Of a stretch of 22,739 nt of DNA, positions 2,650-11,225 are shown piece by piece (positions within the stretch are counted from its first letter, which is position 1; each line of letters starts with the position of its first letter). The notes under the pieces are model-generated. The model worked only from the letters and a program-made list of their open reading frames with translations, did no database searches and was not told the DNA's origin. The stretch covers positions 1 through 22,739 of the forward strand of contig JABDDW010000023.1 in the NCBI GenBank assembly GCA_013287405.1, given 5' to 3'. The stretch is from Deltaproteobacteria bacterium (GTDB taxonomy: Bacteria; Bdellovibrionota; Bdellovibrionia; JABDDW01). The position numbers were made by a program, and so were the translations under genes.

Positions 2650-3633
2650 ATGGCGGATGTAGGCTGGCTTGCAGAGCAAGCACGACAAATTCACGATGTA
2701 TTCTCGTCTCTATTTTTTATAATTTTAACGACCCTTCTATTACTTGGAGTTTTTGTTGAATATTTCAAATGGCCCTTGGGAGAAGCCCCGGCATTTACCC
2801 AACTTGTCGGAAGGGCCTTTATCGCCGTATTTTTGCTCCACACCTATCCAGAGGTTTCAAATGCCATTGCTGATTGTATCGACGGGCTTGCTCAAAAGCT
2901 CGGAGACCTAAACCAATTTAACCTTGTTTTAGCTCAAATGGGTCAAAAGCTCCATGAGTTCACCTATTCCTGGGTAAGTGTGAAGGAAATCATTATATGG
3001 GTATTATCTTTTCTGACATTCTTTTTACTCTACATCTCCGTTCACGCAGTCAATGCTTTTGCACTCTACACCTGGACGATTTTATATGTAACAGCCCCTT
3101 TTTTGATTGTCCTTTTCGTTTTGCCCTCGACCTCCCAAGTTACAAAGTCCCTTTATAAGTCCCTCATTGAAATTGCCCTCTGGAAGGTGGTTTGGTCGAT
3201 TTTGGCGACCCTGCTTTGGAGTTTTGCCTTAAGTAAAATCAATCACTCTGAGCAACAAATCCCATTTGTCACCGTGATTTTTCTAAACCTCATTTTGGCA
3301 GGGTCAATTCTAATGACACCAACCGTGGTCCATGCCCTTGCTAACGGCGGCTTTTCAGCTCTCGCCGGTGCTGCCGGAGGACTCGTTGCCGGAAGCACCA
3401 TGATGGCCCCCAAAATGTTTGCGACCGCTGCCCTAAATAAAGCAAAACCTCTTGCAGCGGGAGTCACGGCAGGAACCTCCAAGATTCAAAGCCTCATGTC
3501 AGCCAAAACTCAAGTCAAACCAAGCCAATCTAACAAAATGTCTGCCCCTCCCAAATGGCATAAGGATGTTCCATTTCCCACTGAACCTCCGCCATATATG
3601 AAATCCCGACTTGAAAAAGAAAAATCTAAATAA
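2650..3633 (+). CDS. VirB6/TrbL-like polytopic T4SS membrane protein
   Basis: This is a 327-aa protein; ATG 2650 lies 3 nt after the VirB5-like stop, with GAGG at 2637-2640. At least five hydrophobic segments are visible: VFSSLFFIILTTLLLLGVF; RAFIAVFLLHTY; a long one around IIIWVLSFLTFFLLYI continuing to ILYVTAPFLIVLFVLP; LWKVVWSILATLLW; and TVIFLNLILAGSILM. A Gly/Ala-rich stretch and a hydrophilic Pro/Lys-rich C-terminal tail of about 70 residues follow. VirB6/TrbL proteins are inner-membrane T4SS components that help move the substrate across the membrane. Length, topology and position support the call. The exact subfamily (TrbL, VirB6 or TraG N-terminal-like) is uncertain. Confidence 0.65.
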   Translation: MADVGWLAEQARQIHDVFSSLFFIILTTLLLLGVFVEYFKWPLGEAPAFTQLVGRAFIAVFLLHTYPEVSNAIADCIDGLAQKLGDLNQFNLVLAQMGQKLHEFTYSWVSVKEIIIWVLSFLTFFLLYISVHAVNAFALYTWTILYVTAPFLIVLFVLPSTSQVTKSLYKSLIEIALWKVVWSILATLLWSFALSKINHSEQQIPFVTVIFLNLILAGSILMTPTVVHALANGGFSALAGAAGGLVAGSTMMAPKMFATAALNKAKPLAAGVTAGTSKIQSLMSAKTQVKPSQSNKMSAPPKWHKDVPFPTEPPPYMKSRLEKEKSK

Positions 3634-3648
3634 GGAGAATTTTAAAAA

Positions 3649-4185
3649 ATGCGATTTACTGTCGCCTGGGCAAACGTACTTGTCCAAAACATCAGCCTAA
3701 AATTTGTGGCCCTACTTCTTACGATCGTTTCAGTTTCTCTTACCATCGCCGCGGTGAGGATGGCTTTTCGTGATCCTCTCATTATAGAGCGCGGGTGCGC
3801 AACAACTGCGATTGACACTACTTCTAATGCTAGATCGACTTCTGAAATTGAAGTTTTTCTAAAAGAAGCACTCGCCATGAGATTTAACACCGGGGTCTCA
3901 ATTAACATGAACTTTTTTTCGTCAGAAGAAGTCTCGGCCATAAACGCCGAGCAAAAGGAACTTGCCCAACGTTCAATGAGTCAAAAAGTAATTGTAAATA
4001 GCATAAAGGTGGACGGCGCAAAGGCCCTTATTGATTGCGATAGACTCGTGTCTGTTGGCACCGTTCGCTCCGTTTTGCCATTCACATTGAACGTTAATCT
4101 TTCAACTGACTCAAGATCGAAGGCCAATCCCTATGGCCTGATTATAAGCCACGTGGCTGTAAATAAAACGGGGGATCACAAATGA
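3649..4185 (+). CDS. traE: TraE family (VirB8-like) T4SS inner-membrane protein
   Basis: This is a 178-aa protein with a strong RBS (AAGGAG at 3633-3638). TraE, the F-type counterpart of VirB8, is a bitopic inner-membrane assembly factor of the conjugation channel. One N-terminal membrane helix is visible (residues ~16-36, FVALLLTIVSVSLTIAAVRM). It is followed directly by FRDPLIIERGC, very close to the PLVIERGC-type signature of TraE proteins. The rest is a mixed alpha/beta periplasmic domain. The usual length for the family is about 180-200 aa, so it looks complete. It overlaps the next gene by ATGA, indicating translational coupling in the tra operon. Confidence 0.8.
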   Translation: MRFTVAWANVLVQNISLKFVALLLTIVSVSLTIAAVRMAFRDPLIIERGCATTAIDTTSNARSTSEIEVFLKEALAMRFNTGVSINMNFFSSEEVSAINAEQKELAQRSMSQKVIVNSIKVDGAKALIDCDRLVSVGTVRSVLPFTLNVNLSTDSRSKANPYGLIISHVAVNKTGDHK

Positions 4186-4589
4186 TGAGTAAAAAAGAGG
4201 GGGCTGACTTTCATTTCTGGTTTCTGATCCTGATTACGATTTTTGTCTGTCTCTTTTATGCAAAATTTATTTTAGCTAAAGACGTTAGAACCCTAAAGCT
4301 TAACGACAAAACTGTGGCCCATATTAAAGTTTCTCCCAAGGGTACGGTTTTGAGTTTTCCAACAAAGCCATCAAAGGTCATCGTTGGAAGCAGAGGTATG
4401 TTTGGGCTTGAGTACGTTGCAAACGACATTGCAATTTCAAGTCTTTCAAAAAATTCGCGTTCCAATATGTTCGTTTATCTAGATGGAAGGCGCTTCACCT
4501 TTGATCTTTCAACTTCTGAAGTCGATGGAGATCAAATTATTTTAATCAGAGATGATTTTGAAAATCAAATAAAGGTGAAAATGAAATGA
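4182..4589 (+). CDS. Short TraK/VirB9-like T4SS protein
   Basis: This is a 135-aa protein overlapping traE at its start (ATGA) and the TraB-like gene at its end (ATGA). An N-terminal hydrophobic segment (FWFLILITIFVCLFYAKFI) serves as signal peptide or anchor. It is followed by an all-beta domain: VAHIKVSPKGTVLSFPTKP is the typical opening of TraK/VirB9 N-terminal domains, and VYLDGRRFTFDL precedes the end. TraK/VirB9 form the outer ring of the T4SS core complex with VirB7 and VirB10. Family members usually have about 240-300 aa with a second C-terminal beta domain that binds the lipoprotein. That domain is absent here, so this is a minimal or truncated form. No frameshift is evident and its end is neatly coupled to the next gene. 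Confidence 0.65.
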   Translation: MMSKKEGADFHFWFLILITIFVCLFYAKFILAKDVRTLKLNDKTVAHIKVSPKGTVLSFPTKPSKVIVGSRGMFGLEYVANDIAISSLSKNSRSNMFVYLDGRRFTFDLSTSEVDGDQIILIRDDFENQIKVKMK

Positions 4590-5476
4590 CAACCGAGCCT
4601 ACTCCGAAAGTTGAGATTGTCTCAGAACCCGGAGTTAAGAACCAGTGGGGAAAGGGGATGTTATATTCCCGAGACGGCAAGAAATTTACTATCAAAATGA
4701 AGGAGGCCATGTGGGGAGGGCTTTTTGGATTTGTCGTTTTGTCATTGTTCCTTCTAATTCAGGGAGACCCAGAAGTGGCAAAACAGGCGCAGCCTAATAT
4801 TGATTCTCCAGACCTTAATTCGGTTTCTAACCAACTTCAAAACATCCCGGGCATCGGTGACGGTGCGCCTCTCTCTACGTCAAACGGGTCCACTCTTAAG
4901 AGGTCAGTGAGATTCTTAGGCCCCCAACTCTCCGTCAACCAATCCTCCCAGAAAATTCCCCCTGGCTCTACGGTCAAGGCCGTTCTTTTAACGACGGGTA
5001 CTGACGGGTTAATACGGGCCAAAAGTGTCGAGCCCATGGTCTCATATGGTGAAACCAAGTTCGATGAAGGGACAATATTTCTTGGCACAGGCACCTCAAG
5101 TGATGACCGCCTTAAAATCAATTTTAGACAGATGGTTTTTCAAGATGGCACTTTTCAAAACGTAGAAGCCGAAGCCTTTGACGATTCAGATCAAATGTTA
5201 GGCCTTAAAGGAGAAAAAATTAAAAGCGAGGGCCTAAAGCTAGGTGCGGCGATTGGTTTAAATTTCGCCGGCGGCCTATCTGAAGGCCTTCAAGACTCTG
5301 ATGTTCAAGGAGGTGTGGAAGTAAAAAAATCAAATCTTAAAAATGCGATGCTAAATGGCGCGGCCACCGCGGCCCTCGATCAGTCCCGTGAAATGATGTC
5401 GGATTTCAAAAACCAGCACAATAATGTCAGCGTCCCCGCTGGCAAAACTCTCATTATTACTTTTGAAGGAAATTAG
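4586..5476 (+). CDS. TraB/VirB10-like T4SS core scaffold protein
   Basis: This is a 296-aa protein. Architecture in order: a short cytoplasmic N-terminus; one membrane helix (~residues 46-64, GGLFGFVVLSLFLLIQGD); a hydrophilic linker; and a C-terminal beta-barrel domain. The domain starts with IPPGSTVKAVLLTTG and ends with VPAGKTLIITFEGN, both characteristic of TrbI/VirB10/TraB. A Gly/Leu-rich hydrophobic segment (LKLGAAIGLNFAGGLSEGL) near residue 225 matches the antenna region that spans the outer membrane in the family. The protein bridges both membranes and senses ATPase activity in known T4SSs. At under 300 aa it is shorter than F TraB (~475 aa), mainly in the linker. It is coupled to the upstream gene by ATGA. 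Confidence 0.75.
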   Translation: MTTEPTPKVEIVSEPGVKNQWGKGMLYSRDGKKFTIKMKEAMWGGLFGFVVLSLFLLIQGDPEVAKQAQPNIDSPDLNSVSNQLQNIPGIGDGAPLSTSNGSTLKRSVRFLGPQLSVNQSSQKIPPGSTVKAVLLTTGTDGLIRAKSVEPMVSYGETKFDEGTIFLGTGTSSDDRLKINFRQMVFQDGTFQNVEAEAFDDSDQMLGLKGEKIKSEGLKLGAAIGLNFAGGLSEGLQDSDVQGGVEVKKSNLKNAMLNGAATAALDQSREMMSDFKNQHNNVSVPAGKTLIITFEGN

Positions 5477-5477
5477 A

Positions 5478-6983
5478 ATGAAAATCCAGAATAGATACCT
5501 TGATGATTTTTCCCAAATCGACTGGGGAGATAAGTTCATAAACCTCGCACGAGGTTTGTCCAGGCCCTTAATAGAAGTGGGTTACGGCATTAAGACAAAG
5601 AGTATGCCCACCCACTATTTAATATGGATCACAAATTTTTTGGCTCTTGGAATTTTATTTCACATAGACCGATATGTGTTTAACCACGTTCATTTTGGAT
5701 TCTTTAAACTCTCTTATCTCTACCCACATAAGCCGATTCTCTATTGGCCTTATGTTTATGGAGCTATCACGTCTCCCTTTTGGGTGTGGGGAGCAAGGCA
5801 AGCCTGGGAAAGGCGAAAACTTGCTAATAGACTCACTGACGTTTTTACGACCGCAGGACTTAAGAATGCCCTTGGGAAATTCCCTAATTTTATTTGTGAT
5901 GTCCCAATTGACGAATTCACAAGAAAGCTTCGAGTAACAAGGGCCAATTTTAGCAAAAAATCCTTTGACGAAGCAAAAGACTACTTGGCTTCAAGTCTTC
6001 AGGTTTTCATTGATGAAATCAAAGAGGAGCGTGAAAAGGGAATCGTTGACATTATTTACTCCCAAATTCCTATGCCCACGTTTGTCGAACTTGATAACTT
6101 AATGGAAATTGGACCCCTTCAAATCGTCATTGGGAAAACTCGATCTCAATTGATCACGGTGAGTCTAAAAAATGTTCCGCACTTCATCCTCGGTGGACAA
6201 ACCGGAGGTGGTAAGTCCACAAGCATTCGAGGAATTATGACGACCCTTTACCTTAATAATCCCAACATGGAATTTAGCCTCATTGACCTTAAAGGAGGTT
6301 TAGAATTCCAACTCTTTGAAAGCCTGCCAAGAGTTGAAGTTATCCCAAGCCTTGCCCTTGCCGTAGGAAAGTTTGAAATTCTAAAAAAAGATCTCGACAC
6401 GAGAATGGAGCTTCTCAAAACCTATAACTGTAAAGACCTTGAGTCCTATGAGAAGATTCGAGAACTCAAAATTAAGCAGGTGGGACACAAGTTGCCGGTG
6501 TTAAAACGCCACGTCGTTATCATTGATGAGGCAGCCGAACTATTTTTATCAGGTGGTGGCGTAGATAATAGCCAAATTCAAATTGCCCGCCGCATTTTAA
6601 GCCAAATCGCAAGGCAGGGGCGAAGTGTTGGATTTACTCTCATAGTCGCAACCCAAAGACCTGATGCCAGAGCCCTTGACCCCCAGGTTAAGGCAAATTT
6701 GCCAGGTGTCATTTGCTTTCAAATGCTTAACGATTCATCAAGCATTACGGTTTTAGGAAATGGCCGTGCCACTGATCTGCCAAGTGTTCCGGGACGGGCC
6801 ATTTGGAAAACGGGCTCTGAGATGATGGAGGTGCAAACACCGTTTTTGAGTTTTGAAAATGCAGAACGGCTTTTAGAGCCCTACCGGATAAAAAAGCCAA
6901 ACCCAAATGGTCAACCTACCAAACCTGAAACCGCATCTCTGACGCAGCCCCAACGTTTAAAGCCTAGTGACAAGGAGGATTAG
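5478..6983 (+). CDS. FtsK/HerA-type membrane DNA-pumping ATPase, candidate T4SS coupling protein
   Basis: This is a 501-aa protein. ATG 5478 is chosen, with GAAGGA at 5465-5470; the frame also opens upstream inside the TraB-like gene. Two N-terminal membrane segments (YLIWITNFLALGILFHI, ~40-57; YVYGAITSPFWVWG, ~80-95) precede a RecA-like motor. Walker A is GGQTGGGKST (~residue 239), followed by SLIDLKGG, Walker B VVIIDEAAEL (~345-355) and FTLIVATQRPDA (~390). DLKGG and the ATQRP motif are FtsK/SpoIIIE hallmarks rather than VirD4/TraG ones. There is no gamma domain, so chromosomal FtsK is excluded. FtsK-like ATPases (TcpA type) act as coupling proteins in many Gram-positive conjugation systems. 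The place between T4SS genes and a relaxase candidate suggests the same job: bringing the DNA substrate to the channel. Confidence 0.8.
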   Translation: MKIQNRYLDDFSQIDWGDKFINLARGLSRPLIEVGYGIKTKSMPTHYLIWITNFLALGILFHIDRYVFNHVHFGFFKLSYLYPHKPILYWPYVYGAITSPFWVWGARQAWERRKLANRLTDVFTTAGLKNALGKFPNFICDVPIDEFTRKLRVTRANFSKKSFDEAKDYLASSLQVFIDEIKEEREKGIVDIIYSQIPMPTFVELDNLMEIGPLQIVIGKTRSQLITVSLKNVPHFILGGQTGGGKSTSIRGIMTTLYLNNPNMEFSLIDLKGGLEFQLFESLPRVEVIPSLALAVGKFEILKKDLDTRMELLKTYNCKDLESYEKIRELKIKQVGHKLPVLKRHVVIIDEAAELFLSGGGVDNSQIQIARRILSQIARQGRSVGFTLIVATQRPDARALDPQVKANLPGVICFQMLNDSSSITVLGNGRATDLPSVPGRAIWKTGSEMMEVQTPFLSFENAERLLEPYRIKKPNPNGQPTKPETASLTQPQRLKPSDKED

Positions 6984-6985
6984 TT

Positions 6986-7855
6986 TTGATCCCAGATATT
7001 TTGATCACAGAAAGGGATGAGCTGATCTTAAATTTTTTATGGCGATTCAAGGTGGCAACAACCGCCACTTTGGTCAAAAGATTTTTTCCTAGTTCTCAAA
7101 GCCCGATAACAGGATACAAGCGCCTTCTCCATTTAAAGCGTCACAAGTTCATTCAAATCCGTTCTGATAATAAATCAGAAGAGTTTGGCTGGATGTTAGA
7201 TGTTAACGGATATCGAAAAATCAAAGATACCGTCGGAGAAATCGCAAGGCCAGGATACGCGCCTGAAAGCATCGTCCACGATCTCCTTGTCAGTGCCGTG
7301 TTACTCGGAGATTGGTTTTTGGGATTCCCGGAAGGCTCTAGCGTATTCACCGAACAGGAACTTAAAAGGCTTCATCCAAGTGTCTATGAAGATTGGGTGC
7401 CAACAAACCTGTTAAGAATCCCCGATGGCCTGTGGCATGTCCCGAAGATGGGATCAACCGCCACGATTGCACTAGAAGTTGAATTAAATCAAAAAAGTTC
7501 TGAGAATTACCAAAAAATTGCTCAAGTATATGGAATGCAGGAATTTTATCGTGTATTATGGATAGCAAATACGGAAAAGCTCGCCTCAAAAATTGCAACC
7601 ACAATTCAAAAAACTACACCCAACAAACCTTTTAACCACAACTTTGTGACCCTTGCGGATTTTAAGAAACGCGGTTGGCAGGCCCCGATCATCCTAGGTC
7701 CTGACAAGGAACGCACAATCGCAAAGCTTCTCGGAGCCACCCAAGAAAACACCCCAGAACTTTTTTCTAATGGTTTTCTTTTGAACGGTCAAAAATTCCC
7801 ATTCAAATCAAAGACTTTCATCCAAAATTCTGTCGTCGCAGAAAGCATTTATTAG
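6986..7855 (+). CDS. Replication-relaxation-like winged-helix protein, candidate relaxase
   Basis: This is a 289-aa protein. The start is TTG 6986, with a near-perfect RBS AAGGAGG (6972-6978) at 7 nt. The N-terminus (ITERDELILNFLWRFKVAT, ending before LVKRFFP) is the typical winged-helix opening of replication-relaxation (Replic_Relax) proteins. The middle contains VHDLLVSAVLLGDW, RIPDGLWHV and IALEVELNQKSSENYQKI, which matches the family's conserved H-D and PD/E-x-E-type core. The family is found on plasmids and conjugative elements and has been proposed to act in DNA relaxation or transfer. It lies 2 nt after the FtsK-like ATPase, a pairing that suggests a joint DNA-processing unit. Catalytic activity is inferred, not shown. 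Confidence 0.65.
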   Translation: MIPDILITERDELILNFLWRFKVATTATLVKRFFPSSQSPITGYKRLLHLKRHKFIQIRSDNKSEEFGWMLDVNGYRKIKDTVGEIARPGYAPESIVHDLLVSAVLLGDWFLGFPEGSSVFTEQELKRLHPSVYEDWVPTNLLRIPDGLWHVPKMGSTATIALEVELNQKSSENYQKIAQVYGMQEFYRVLWIANTEKLASKIATTIQKTTPNKPFNHNFVTLADFKKRGWQAPIILGPDKERTIAKLLGATQENTPELFSNGFLLNGQKFPFKSKTFIQNSVVAESIY

Positions 7856-7871
7856 TATATATCCATATACT
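7854..7871 (+). terminator. Weak AT-rich stem-loop after the transfer operon
   Basis: AGTATAT (7854-7860) pairs perfectly with ATATACT (7865-7871) over a 4-nt loop, starting at the stop codon of the relaxase candidate and followed by ttatatccc. The stem is AT-only apart from one G-C pair and the T-tract is short, so termination would be weak. The next ~80 nt are C/T-rich and gene-free. It may only mark a partial boundary before the lipoprotein-recombinase cluster. Confidence 0.3.
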
Positions 7872-7963
7872 TTATATCCCTTCATTCCCCGTACCCCTTC
7901 TACCTTTCATTTACCCACTCAATTCATACCCATCATTTCATCATTAAAAAGGAGCCCAGACAT

Positions 7964-8368
7964 TTGAACTCCAAAAGAATTGTTTCATTAATTATCGTCT
8001 CTTTATATTTATGCTCATGTTCAACTCTAAAAGATAGTCTGCTTCTCGGTGGCGGCATTGGTGCCACAGCCGGTGGGGTTGCCGGAAATTTTATCGGTTC
8101 CAATAACGGAAACCCAACCACCGGTACAATTGTGGGGGCCGGAAGTGGATTACTCCTTGGTGCTCTTATCGGTTATTCAGCCTATAAGAGCGGTCAAAAA
8201 CCGCCGCCAAACACAACAAGTAGCCCCAATTCTGATTCCAAAACGCCGTCTCTTTCTAGCCCAGTTGTTAGAAAAATCTGGGTCCCTTCCAAAATTGAAA
8301 ATAATAAATTTATCGAGGGGCATTTCGAGTTCGTAATAGAAAGGCAATCGGTATGGATCGACCAGTAG
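7964..8368 (+). CDS. Glycine-zipper lipoprotein
   Basis: This is a 134-aa protein. The start is TTG 7964, with AAGGAG at 7949-7954. A short basic N-terminus and hydrophobic core (RIVSLIIVSLYL) lead to CSCS. The lipobox-like L-C-S-C makes Cys19 the probable lipidated residue. The following ~50 residues are a Gly-zipper (GGGIGATAGGVAGNFIG, then GTIVGAGSGLLLGALIGY), then a Pro/Ser linker and a small C-terminal beta-like part. Small lipoproteins stabilise the outer-membrane ring in T4SSs (VirB7/TraV). This one could fill that role, since no other candidate is in the window, but Gly-zipper lipoproteins also serve as entry-exclusion or surface proteins. It overlaps the next gene by 16 nt. Confidence 0.6.
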   Translation: MNSKRIVSLIIVSLYLCSCSTLKDSLLLGGGIGATAGGVAGNFIGSNNGNPTTGTIVGAGSGLLLGALIGYSAYKSGQKPPPNTTSSPNSDSKTPSLSSPVVRKIWVPSKIENNKFIEGHFEFVIERQSVWIDQ

Positions 8369-8784
8369 AATCTCAAAAAAGAAAGCGTCACGCTGAGAGA
8401 GTCACATTAAATGAGACGTCGCTTACAAAATTAAATGCCTGGCTCTGCCAAATTGAAAATCAAAATAAGGGCATTAACATTAATAAAAATAGCCTTATCA
8501 ATTGGCTCTTAAACGAACTACCAGCGCAATTGTCTCTCAAGCAATTAAACGAACTTCAAGCTCAGTACCTTGACCCAGTAAAACAGGCAAAAGAGGCCCT
8601 TAGGGAAGCCAGGGCCGCAAAAGCTCGCGGTGAGAAGTTCGTTTTAAAAATCGAGATGGATCATGTTGATGATTTGCCTAGGCCCAAGAGGGTCTATAAG
8701 AAAAAAGAAGCCAACCCTGAATTACCCCTGACCCTTAAAGAACAAAGAGTCATTGAAGAATCGCATGATCTTGAGGCCACTTAA
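8353..8784 (+). CDS. Basic, DNA-binding-like accessory protein
   Basis: This is a 143-aa protein. ATG 8353 lies 16 nt inside the lipoprotein gene, with AAAGG about 10 nt upstream. Residues ~10-55 (KRHAERVTLNETSLTKLNAW, then a helix ending NWLLNELPAQL) have the strand-helix-helix look of a ribbon-helix-helix domain. This is followed by a Lys/Arg/Ala-rich helix (KEALREARAAKARGEK) and an acidic/basic tail. Relaxosome accessory and transcriptional control proteins of conjugative elements often have this make-up. I cannot assign a named family. Its stop abuts the ATG of the following 69-aa gene (TAAATG), so the two are probably translated together. Confidence 0.5.
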   Translation: MDRPVESQKRKRHAERVTLNETSLTKLNAWLCQIENQNKGININKNSLINWLLNELPAQLSLKQLNELQAQYLDPVKQAKEALREARAAKARGEKFVLKIEMDHVDDLPRPKRVYKKKEANPELPLTLKEQRVIEESHDLEAT

Positions 8785-8994
8785 ATGGCTACCTGGTGTG
8801 TCAAACAACCCCCGACAATTTTCCCCGTTATCATTGATGGGGAAAAGTTTTCGGAAATCCTTGCCTCAATTGCTGAACTTTTGTATAAATACTGTAGCGC
8901 CCAACTCAAAAGTCAAAATGATTCGTGCCCTTTGTCCCTTGAAGTAAATCCCGTTTCCGACCTAACCAAACTTAGGAGGAAGCGAAATGTTTAA
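8785..8994 (+). CDS. Hypothetical 69-aa protein
   Basis: ATG 8785 directly follows the TAA of the upstream gene. The stop at 8992-8994 overlaps the ATG of the recombinase-domain gene by 8 nt. An AGGAGG inside its 3' end (8974-8979) serves the next gene. The protein contains a short hydrophobic helix (FSEILASIAELLYKYCSAQL) and a basic C-terminus (KLRRKRNV). It is plausibly expressed because of the tight spacing. Its size and place just before the recombinases would suit a recombination directionality factor, but nothing in the sequence itself proves this. Confidence 0.4.
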   Translation: MATWCVKQPPTIFPVIIDGEKFSEILASIAELLYKYCSAQLKSQNDSCPLSLEVNPVSDLTKLRRKRNV

Positions 8995-9428
8995 TTCACG
9001 TCAAAAATTTACTCCGCAATTAGGCCATCACATTGCTCTTTACGTCAGGAGTGCCAGTGGCAATGAGTCTGCCATTTCAGAGCAAACGAAAAACCTGAAC
9101 GCCTTTGTTGACAAACAAAATTTGGACTCGAACTTTGGTTGGGTTGTAAAGGTTTTTTCAGATAACCCGGGCTCTGGAATGGATTTCAAGCGGCCTGGGC
9201 TTACGGCTCTCTTAGATTCTGTCGAGAGAAGGGAGCTTGACTTAATTATTGTCACCGATCTTTTAAGGCTTACAAGGTCATCTCAAAATTTTTGGAAGAT
9301 TTTAAAAACTCTTTTTGTAAATGGCTGCGACCTACAAAGTCTTCAAGAAAATTTTCGGCTCTTTGAAAATGAAAAACTCTGTGATGCCTTAAATATGGAA
9401 GTGGGTTTTAAATTTCGGGAGGTCCACC

Positions 9429-9436
<8 letters not shown>
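8987..9436 (+). CDS. Serine-recombinase N-terminal domain paralogue lacking the catalytic Ser
   Basis: This is a 149-aa protein with a strong RBS (AGGAGG, 8974-8979). It aligns along nearly its whole length with the first ~145 residues of the next gene. Shared blocks include SNFG-VV-VF-D, SG-D--R--L--LL--V-R-E and RL-RS, followed by GC---SL-E-F. In the active recombinase the nucleophile is in LYIRVST (Ser23). Here the aligned peptide is LYVRSAS with Ala23, flanked by Ser22 and Ser24. The basic pocket Arg residues (Arg21, RLTRS) are kept. The recombinase, zinc-ribbon and coiled-coil domains are absent, and the natural stop lies 8 nt inside the next gene. It is probably catalytically dead but able to dimerise or bind its partner, so a regulatory subunit is a reasonable inference. 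Confidence 0.75.

Positions 9437-11225
<1,789 letters not shown>

What the first reader, a model, noticed from the sequence alone, without database searches (positions are those of the whole stretch)
8987..9436. Catalytically dead serine-recombinase domain encoded in tandem with its active paralogue
The 149-aa protein aligns with the catalytic domain of the next gene, but the nucleophile Ser23 is Ala23, with Ser on either side. The gene is intact, has a strong RBS and overlaps its partner by 8 nt. A preserved but dead N-terminal domain suggests a regulatory subunit: an asymmetric dimer/tetramer partner, inhibitor, or direction switch for integration versus excision.
Basis: partly seen in the sequence, partly recalled or inferred. 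Interest (0 to 1): 0.75.

Follow-up and report, generated by a model that had tools for sequence, protein, structure and literature searches.

The report
Dead recombinase partner beside an integrase
A mobile element, probably of a Bdellovibrio-like bacterium, carries directly before its DNA-integrase gene a small intact gene for a copy of the integrase's cutting domain that has lost the cutting residue, and similar dead copies exist elsewhere, which suggests an undescribed kind of integrase partner protein.

Summary
The 149-aa gene (8987-9436) encodes a serine-recombinase catalytic domain, 39% identical over 128 aa to the N-terminus of the next gene, a large serine recombinase (LSR), whose start it overlaps by 8 nt. 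Ala23 lies where the LSR has nucleophile Ser23. It does not stand alone: a profile search listed 41 other catalytic-domain-only proteins (75-152 aa; called RSA proteins here). Ala fills the nucleophile position in 41 of 41 aligned rows that hold it, against Ser in 213 of 213 LSR/resolvase domains. The RSA core also lacks Arg45 but keeps Arg8, Gln19, Asp36, Arg68 and, with two exceptions, Arg71. In the two loci where an intact LSR could be seen (window, L025), the dead gene lies between a conserved small companion gene and the LSR. Most likely it is a non-catalytic partner that binds the LSR catalytic domain and restrains or gates recombination; this role is inferred, not shown. It is optional: 1 of 52 related LSR loci carries it, besides the window. 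The window protein is an outlier: the tree puts it with LSRs rather than the RSA core, and one common origin is neither shown nor rejected (AU p 0.235). Eight paper searches listed no description of such a protein.

The parts
8785..8994 (+). companion gene, 69 aa, of a family found directly before LSRs of this clade
   Evidence: Iterative profile search: found in 52 of 53 loci (window included) with 400 nt or more upstream of the LSR frame, missing in L048; control: 0 of 288 shuffled ORFs, 1 of 2857 minus-strand ORFs. No match in Pfam, PHROGs or NCBIfam.
8974..8979 (+). AGGAGG ribosome-binding site of the dead gene
   Evidence: sequence
8987..9436 (+). catalytically dead serine-recombinase catalytic domain, 149 aa (P0001)
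9050..9058 (+). codons of Ser22-Ala23-Ser24 at the nucleophile site
   Evidence: sequence; column counts
9429..9436 (+). 8-nt overlap of the dead gene's end with the LSR start
9429..11225 (+). large serine recombinase (integrase), 598 aa, Ser23 present (codon 9495-9497)
   Evidence: PF00239, PF07508 and PF13408 above cut-off; at least 1757 homologues at E <= 1e-10
11141..11216 (-). tRNA-Ala(GGC) overlapping the LSR 3' end; presumed attachment site
   Evidence: ARAGORN; Rfam RF00005; attachment-site role inferred
2650..8784 (+). conjugation-type gene block of the element, in the same order before the LSR in several related loci
   Evidence: TrbI above cut-off and FtsK/SpoIIIE ATPase; same gene order in L004, L005, L007, L008, L018, L024, L025, L047 and L062

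Best explanation
The gene encodes a pseudo-recombinase: a catalytic domain of serine-recombinase fold without nucleophile, without DNA-binding domains and without a full helix E. It is made in step with the LSR, because the two reading frames overlap. I infer that it binds the LSR through the catalytic-domain/helix E surface that LSRs use to dimerise. Lacking its own helix E it can accept but not donate that helix, so it would cap an LSR subunit or form a non-cutting heterodimer, and so restrain or gate recombination. Shown here: the dead site, its conservation in the RSA family, the fold (predicted), the gene order and overlaps, the optional presence. Inferred: co-translation, binding to the LSR, and the restraining effect.
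Against: No interaction or activity data. Only two DNA contexts show an intact LSR next door; the third (L127) shows only an LSR-like first few codons, and the contexts of the metagenome proteins could not be read. 51 of 52 related LSR loci do without the gene. Retained phosphate-contact arginines could as well mean a DNA-contacting role inside the synaptic complex. The window protein is not clearly one family with the RSA core, so family evidence may not carry over to it.
Confidence: 0.5

Rival explanations
1. It is a recombination directionality factor: it binds the LSR and switches it from integration to excision.
For: Known LSR directionality factors bind their integrase and are unrelated to one another (PMC3783163, passages), so a pseudo-recombinase is possible in that role; small gene next to the LSR.
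Against: Related LSRs work without it: 1 of 52 loci has it. A different small gene accompanies 52 of 53 LSRs and is the better candidate for a general directionality factor.
Confidence: 0.2
2. It is a silent subunit inside the recombining complex: it occupies a catalytic position, contacts the DNA backbone with its kept arginines, and makes cleavage asymmetric.
For: R8, R68, R71 and Q19 are kept while the nucleophile is lost; an S10A resolvase still forms synapses (PMC4499144, passages).
Against: No DNA-binding domain and no full helix E, so it could only be held there by the LSR; R45 is absent from the RSA core.
Confidence: 0.15
3. It is a relic of a tandem duplication with no role of its protein beyond, perhaps, passing ribosomes on to the LSR.
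For: The window gene looks locally duplicated: its N-terminal extension is closest to that of its own LSR (8 of 18 positions; mean 3.5, next best 7 of 18, over 119 LSRs), the DNA match starts before the start codon, and the tree places it among LSRs. Most related LSR loci lack it.
Against: Intact frame, codon pattern and kept residues are unlikely under neutral drift; the RSA core is conserved across 40 proteins.
Confidence: 0.1
4. It is an active recombinase with a shifted nucleophile, Ser22.
For: Ser at R+1 in 41 of 41 rows that hold the position, where 203 of 213 related domains have Val.
Against: R+1 would point to the other face of the strand (structural knowledge, recalled, not measured here); the loop with Gln14 is missing, R45 is missing in the RSA core, and there is no DNA-binding domain.
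Confidence: 0.05

Closest known systems
Large serine recombinases / serine integrases (TP901-1, phiC31, Bxb1, TnpX, Ccr)
   Same: catalytic-domain fold, kept R8, Q19, D36, R68, R71; best sequence match to a solved structure is 3bvp, TP901-1, and best fold match too
   Different: no nucleophile, shorter active-site loop, no recombinase domain, zinc ribbon or coiled coil, helix E cut short or absent
Resolvase/invertase small serine recombinases (gamma-delta, Tn3, Hin)
   Different: no Ser10, no HTH domain, no full helix E; belongs beside an LSR
Recombination directionality factors of serine integrases (gp3 of phiC31, gp47 of Bxb1)
   Same: small protein encoded in the same element, possible LSR binder
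   Different: [quoted passage not shown] derivation from the recombinase itself is not described in the listings I saw
CcrA/CcrB paired LSRs of SCC elements (recalled)
   Same: two serine recombinase genes in tandem
   Different: both partners are full-length and active as far as I recall; here one is a dead domain. NCBIfam Ccr models match far below cut-off

Membership tests
Serine recombinase catalytic domain (PF00239) | domain profile and fold | tested here: met
   57.2 bits, cut-off 23.3; model and PDB matches
Serine recombinase catalytic domain (PF00239) | nucleophilic Ser two residues after the strand-1 Arg | tested here: not met
   Ala23; Ser in 213 of 213 related domains, Ala in 41 of 41 rows of A5
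Large serine recombinase | Recombinase domain PF07508 and zinc ribbon PF13408 after the catalytic domain | tested here: not met
   only PF00239 passes its cut-off in the 149 aa
RSA family as defined here | catalytic-domain-only length, R-S-A-[ST] motif and 12-residue loop from R to Gln | tested here: met
   149 aa, RSAS, 12 residues
RSA family as defined here | lost Arg45 | tested here: not met
   window protein keeps R69; the other 41 rows have a gap there
RSA family as defined here | common descent with the RSA core | tested here: inconclusive
   tree places P0001 with LSRs on a 2.65 branch; one clade not rejected, p 0.235; profile scores 47.4 bits (RSA) against 84.9 (LSR)
Recombination directionality factor | stimulates attL x attR, represses attP x attB | not testable with these tools
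   needs recombination assays

The most novel reading that the evidence does not exclude
Serine recombinases have a recurrent, possibly more than once evolved, class of pseudo-enzyme regulators: catalytic-domain-only proteins with a dismantled active site, encoded in step with the integrase of conjugative elements, that control it by heterodimerising through the catalytic domain. In the window lineage the dead domain arose from its own integrase and reached the same dead loop independently.
Probability: 0.35. Interest if true: 0.85.

Novelty: new variant of a known kind. Interest (0 to 1): 0.68.

Why it matters
How serine integrases of conjugative elements are held in check is known for few systems. 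A conserved dead copy of the catalytic domain, made beside the integrase, would be a directly testable regulator, a natural dominant-negative and a possible tool to control integrases in genome engineering. The 40 RSA-core proteins give a family in which the role can be tested.

Tried and rejected
Homologues of P0001 alone: only itself among 14 candidates of the protein search; no relative in viral contigs. P0001 against plasmids: 1888 records, all under 60% identity, the rows shown being recombinases or unannotated. P0143 in plasmids and P0133 in phages: no match at 1e-5. L025 small protein in viral contigs: none confirmed. A5 in viral contigs: one locus, L128, a phage-like contig with two neighbouring recombinases that carry the normal R-V-S; not a member.

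Genome scan: with A5, 142 of 368 genomes matched at 1e-12, but only G257 (194 bits) and G019 (170 bits; the genome of L025) are RSA; the next score is 94 bits and belongs to a full-length recombinase frame. At most 11 first-look candidates per genome were scored. A second phylum: 2 of 58 genomes matched at 1e-20, both in full-length LSR frames, so 0 of 58 RSA.

Contig-length coincidences (P0127/P0164, P0132/P0163, P0135/P0117, P0153/P0023) were considered as signs of neighbourhood and not used: chance matches are to be expected, and the N-terminus of P0023 does not fit the overlap expected after P0153.

A programmed frameshift joining the two frames: no slippery motif in the window overlap by eye; not tested further.

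Rows dropped: P0161 (N-terminally cut) from the tree; P0162 (75-aa fragment), P0163 and P0164 (ordinary resolvases) from A5. The tree used a sample of LSRs (50 rows).

Results against a single RSA family that includes the window protein: tree placement, best gap placement directly after the Arg for 43 of 54 distinct LSR loops in P0001 but elsewhere in all or nearly all other RSA rows (offset 0 is best in 1 of 41 rows), LSR-like sequence outside residues 22-33.

Full report
Observation. The window holds an intact 149-codon gene, 8987-9436, with AGGAGG 7 nt before its ATG. It matches Pfam Resolvase (E 2.6e-15) and aligns with the N-terminus of the next gene, a 598-aa LSR with Resolvase, Recombinase and zinc-ribbon domains, at 39% over 128 aa. 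R21-S22-A23-S24 stands where the LSR has R21-V22-S23-T24. The gene overlaps the gene before it and the LSR after it by 8 nt each.

Surroundings. Upstream lie conjugation-type genes: TrbI above its cut-off, an FtsK/SpoIIIE ATPase, and a TrbL match below its cut-off. The LSR 3' end overlaps a tRNA-Ala gene, and beyond it lie chromosomal-type genes such as der, era and mnmA. I read this as an integrated conjugative element at a tRNA gene. The other end is not in the window. The titles of most records holding related LSRs name Bdellovibrionota or Oligoflexia groups; the window's own host is inferred from that.

Relatives. P0001 alone finds only itself. Among loci of related LSRs, L025 has the same gene order and, between the companion gene and the LSR, a 125-aa gene with R-S-A-T, 24% identical to P0001 and overlapping the LSR start by 14 nt. 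A scan of 368 genomes with that protein found a third, L098/L127, 133 aa, again R-S-A-T. A profile of the three listed 44 proteins: the window's own, 41 of the new type (75-152 aa) and two ordinary resolvases.

Conservation. In the 42-row alignment A5 (P0001, the L025 protein and P0122-P0161), Ala is at the nucleophile in 41 rows and one row does not reach it. R8 and S at R+1: 41 of 41. Q19 and R68: 42 of 42. D36: Asp 40, Glu 2. R71: 40 of 42. R45: a gap in 41 rows, kept in P0001. In 218 LSR and resolvase domains (120 LSR proteins plus 98 frames from loci, partly the same sequences) Ser is present in 213 and 5 rows do not reach it; R45 is present in 218. The position of gamma-delta D67 is Ser in 216 of those 218, so its Asn in the RSA core is no loss against LSRs. 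Residue numbers of gamma-delta resolvase are recalled.

Selection. Differences from the LSR at codon positions 1/2/3 are 66/46/85, and neutral drift to the same identity kept an open frame in 18 of 2000 runs. The identical protein is seen in 3 contigs.

Is the window protein one of the RSA family? Not settled. In a 99-row tree 40 RSA rows form one group (100/100) and P0001 falls among LSRs on a long branch of 2.65. Holding all 41 together costs 17.8 log units, p-AU 0.235, so one clade is not rejected. Residues 22-33 resemble RSA (mean identity 0.41 against 0.14 to LSRs), the rest resembles LSRs. Its N-terminal extension is closest to its own LSR's (8 of 18; mean 3.5 over 119, next best 7 of 18), and the DNA of both 5' regions aligns with score 218 against at most 186 in 100 shuffles, which the known protein homology alone would also raise. 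The best gap placement differs from that of the RSA core. So either an RSA gene was partly overwritten by LSR sequence, or the window lineage made its own dead copy, which converged on the same loop.

Distribution. Of 65 related loci, 60 have a usable LSR frame and 52 have 400 nt or more upstream; 1 of 52 (L025) has an RSA gene. In 426 genomes of two phyla, 2 carry one. In L127 the gene ends in ATGA with a frame that begins MNATKLGPE, which resembles LSR starts by eye only; no LSR follows, and a group II intron lies on its other side.

Companion. A 45-75-aa gene precedes the LSR in 52 of 53 loci (controls). Because it is nearly universal and the dead gene is optional, the companion is the better candidate for a directionality factor, and the dead gene looks like an added regulator.

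Mechanism. LSR dimers form through catalytic domains and helix E (PMC3783163, passages seen). A catalytic domain without helix E could take up an LSR's helix E but not give one, which suggests capping or a non-cutting heterodimer. The kept phosphate-contact arginines (PMC4499144, passages seen) leave a role inside the complex open. None of this is shown.

Literature. Eight searches of the open-access library, of which I saw the listings, showed no catalytically dead serine-recombinase paralogue encoded beside an LSR. Most subscription papers are not held, so this is weak evidence of absence.

Noticed in passing
window 8785-8994 and the same place in related loci: A small gene family (consensus KWEPKKIELVPVKIDEEEFEQLLAELAEILYSEFCQ) precedes the LSR in 52 of 53 loci and has no match in Pfam, PHROGs or NCBIfam; candidate directionality factor of this LSR clade.
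   Followed up: partly
window 11141-11225: The last part of the LSR reading frame runs through the antisense strand of the tRNA-Ala gene, so the LSR C-terminus is read from the presumed attachment site; other LSRs of the clade share a related C-terminal stretch (consensus).
   Followed up: no
L127 4062-5861: A group II intron (RF02005) with a reverse-transcriptase-like frame lies directly beside the dead recombinase gene, on the opposite strand.
   Followed up: no
L017 1-573 and 2484-3347: Fragments of further LSR-like genes upstream of the intact LSR, as if elements had piled up at one site.
   Followed up: no
L128 3362-5265: Two neighbouring serine recombinase genes (236 and 399 aa), both with the normal R-V-S motif, on a phage-like contig.
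   Followed up: no
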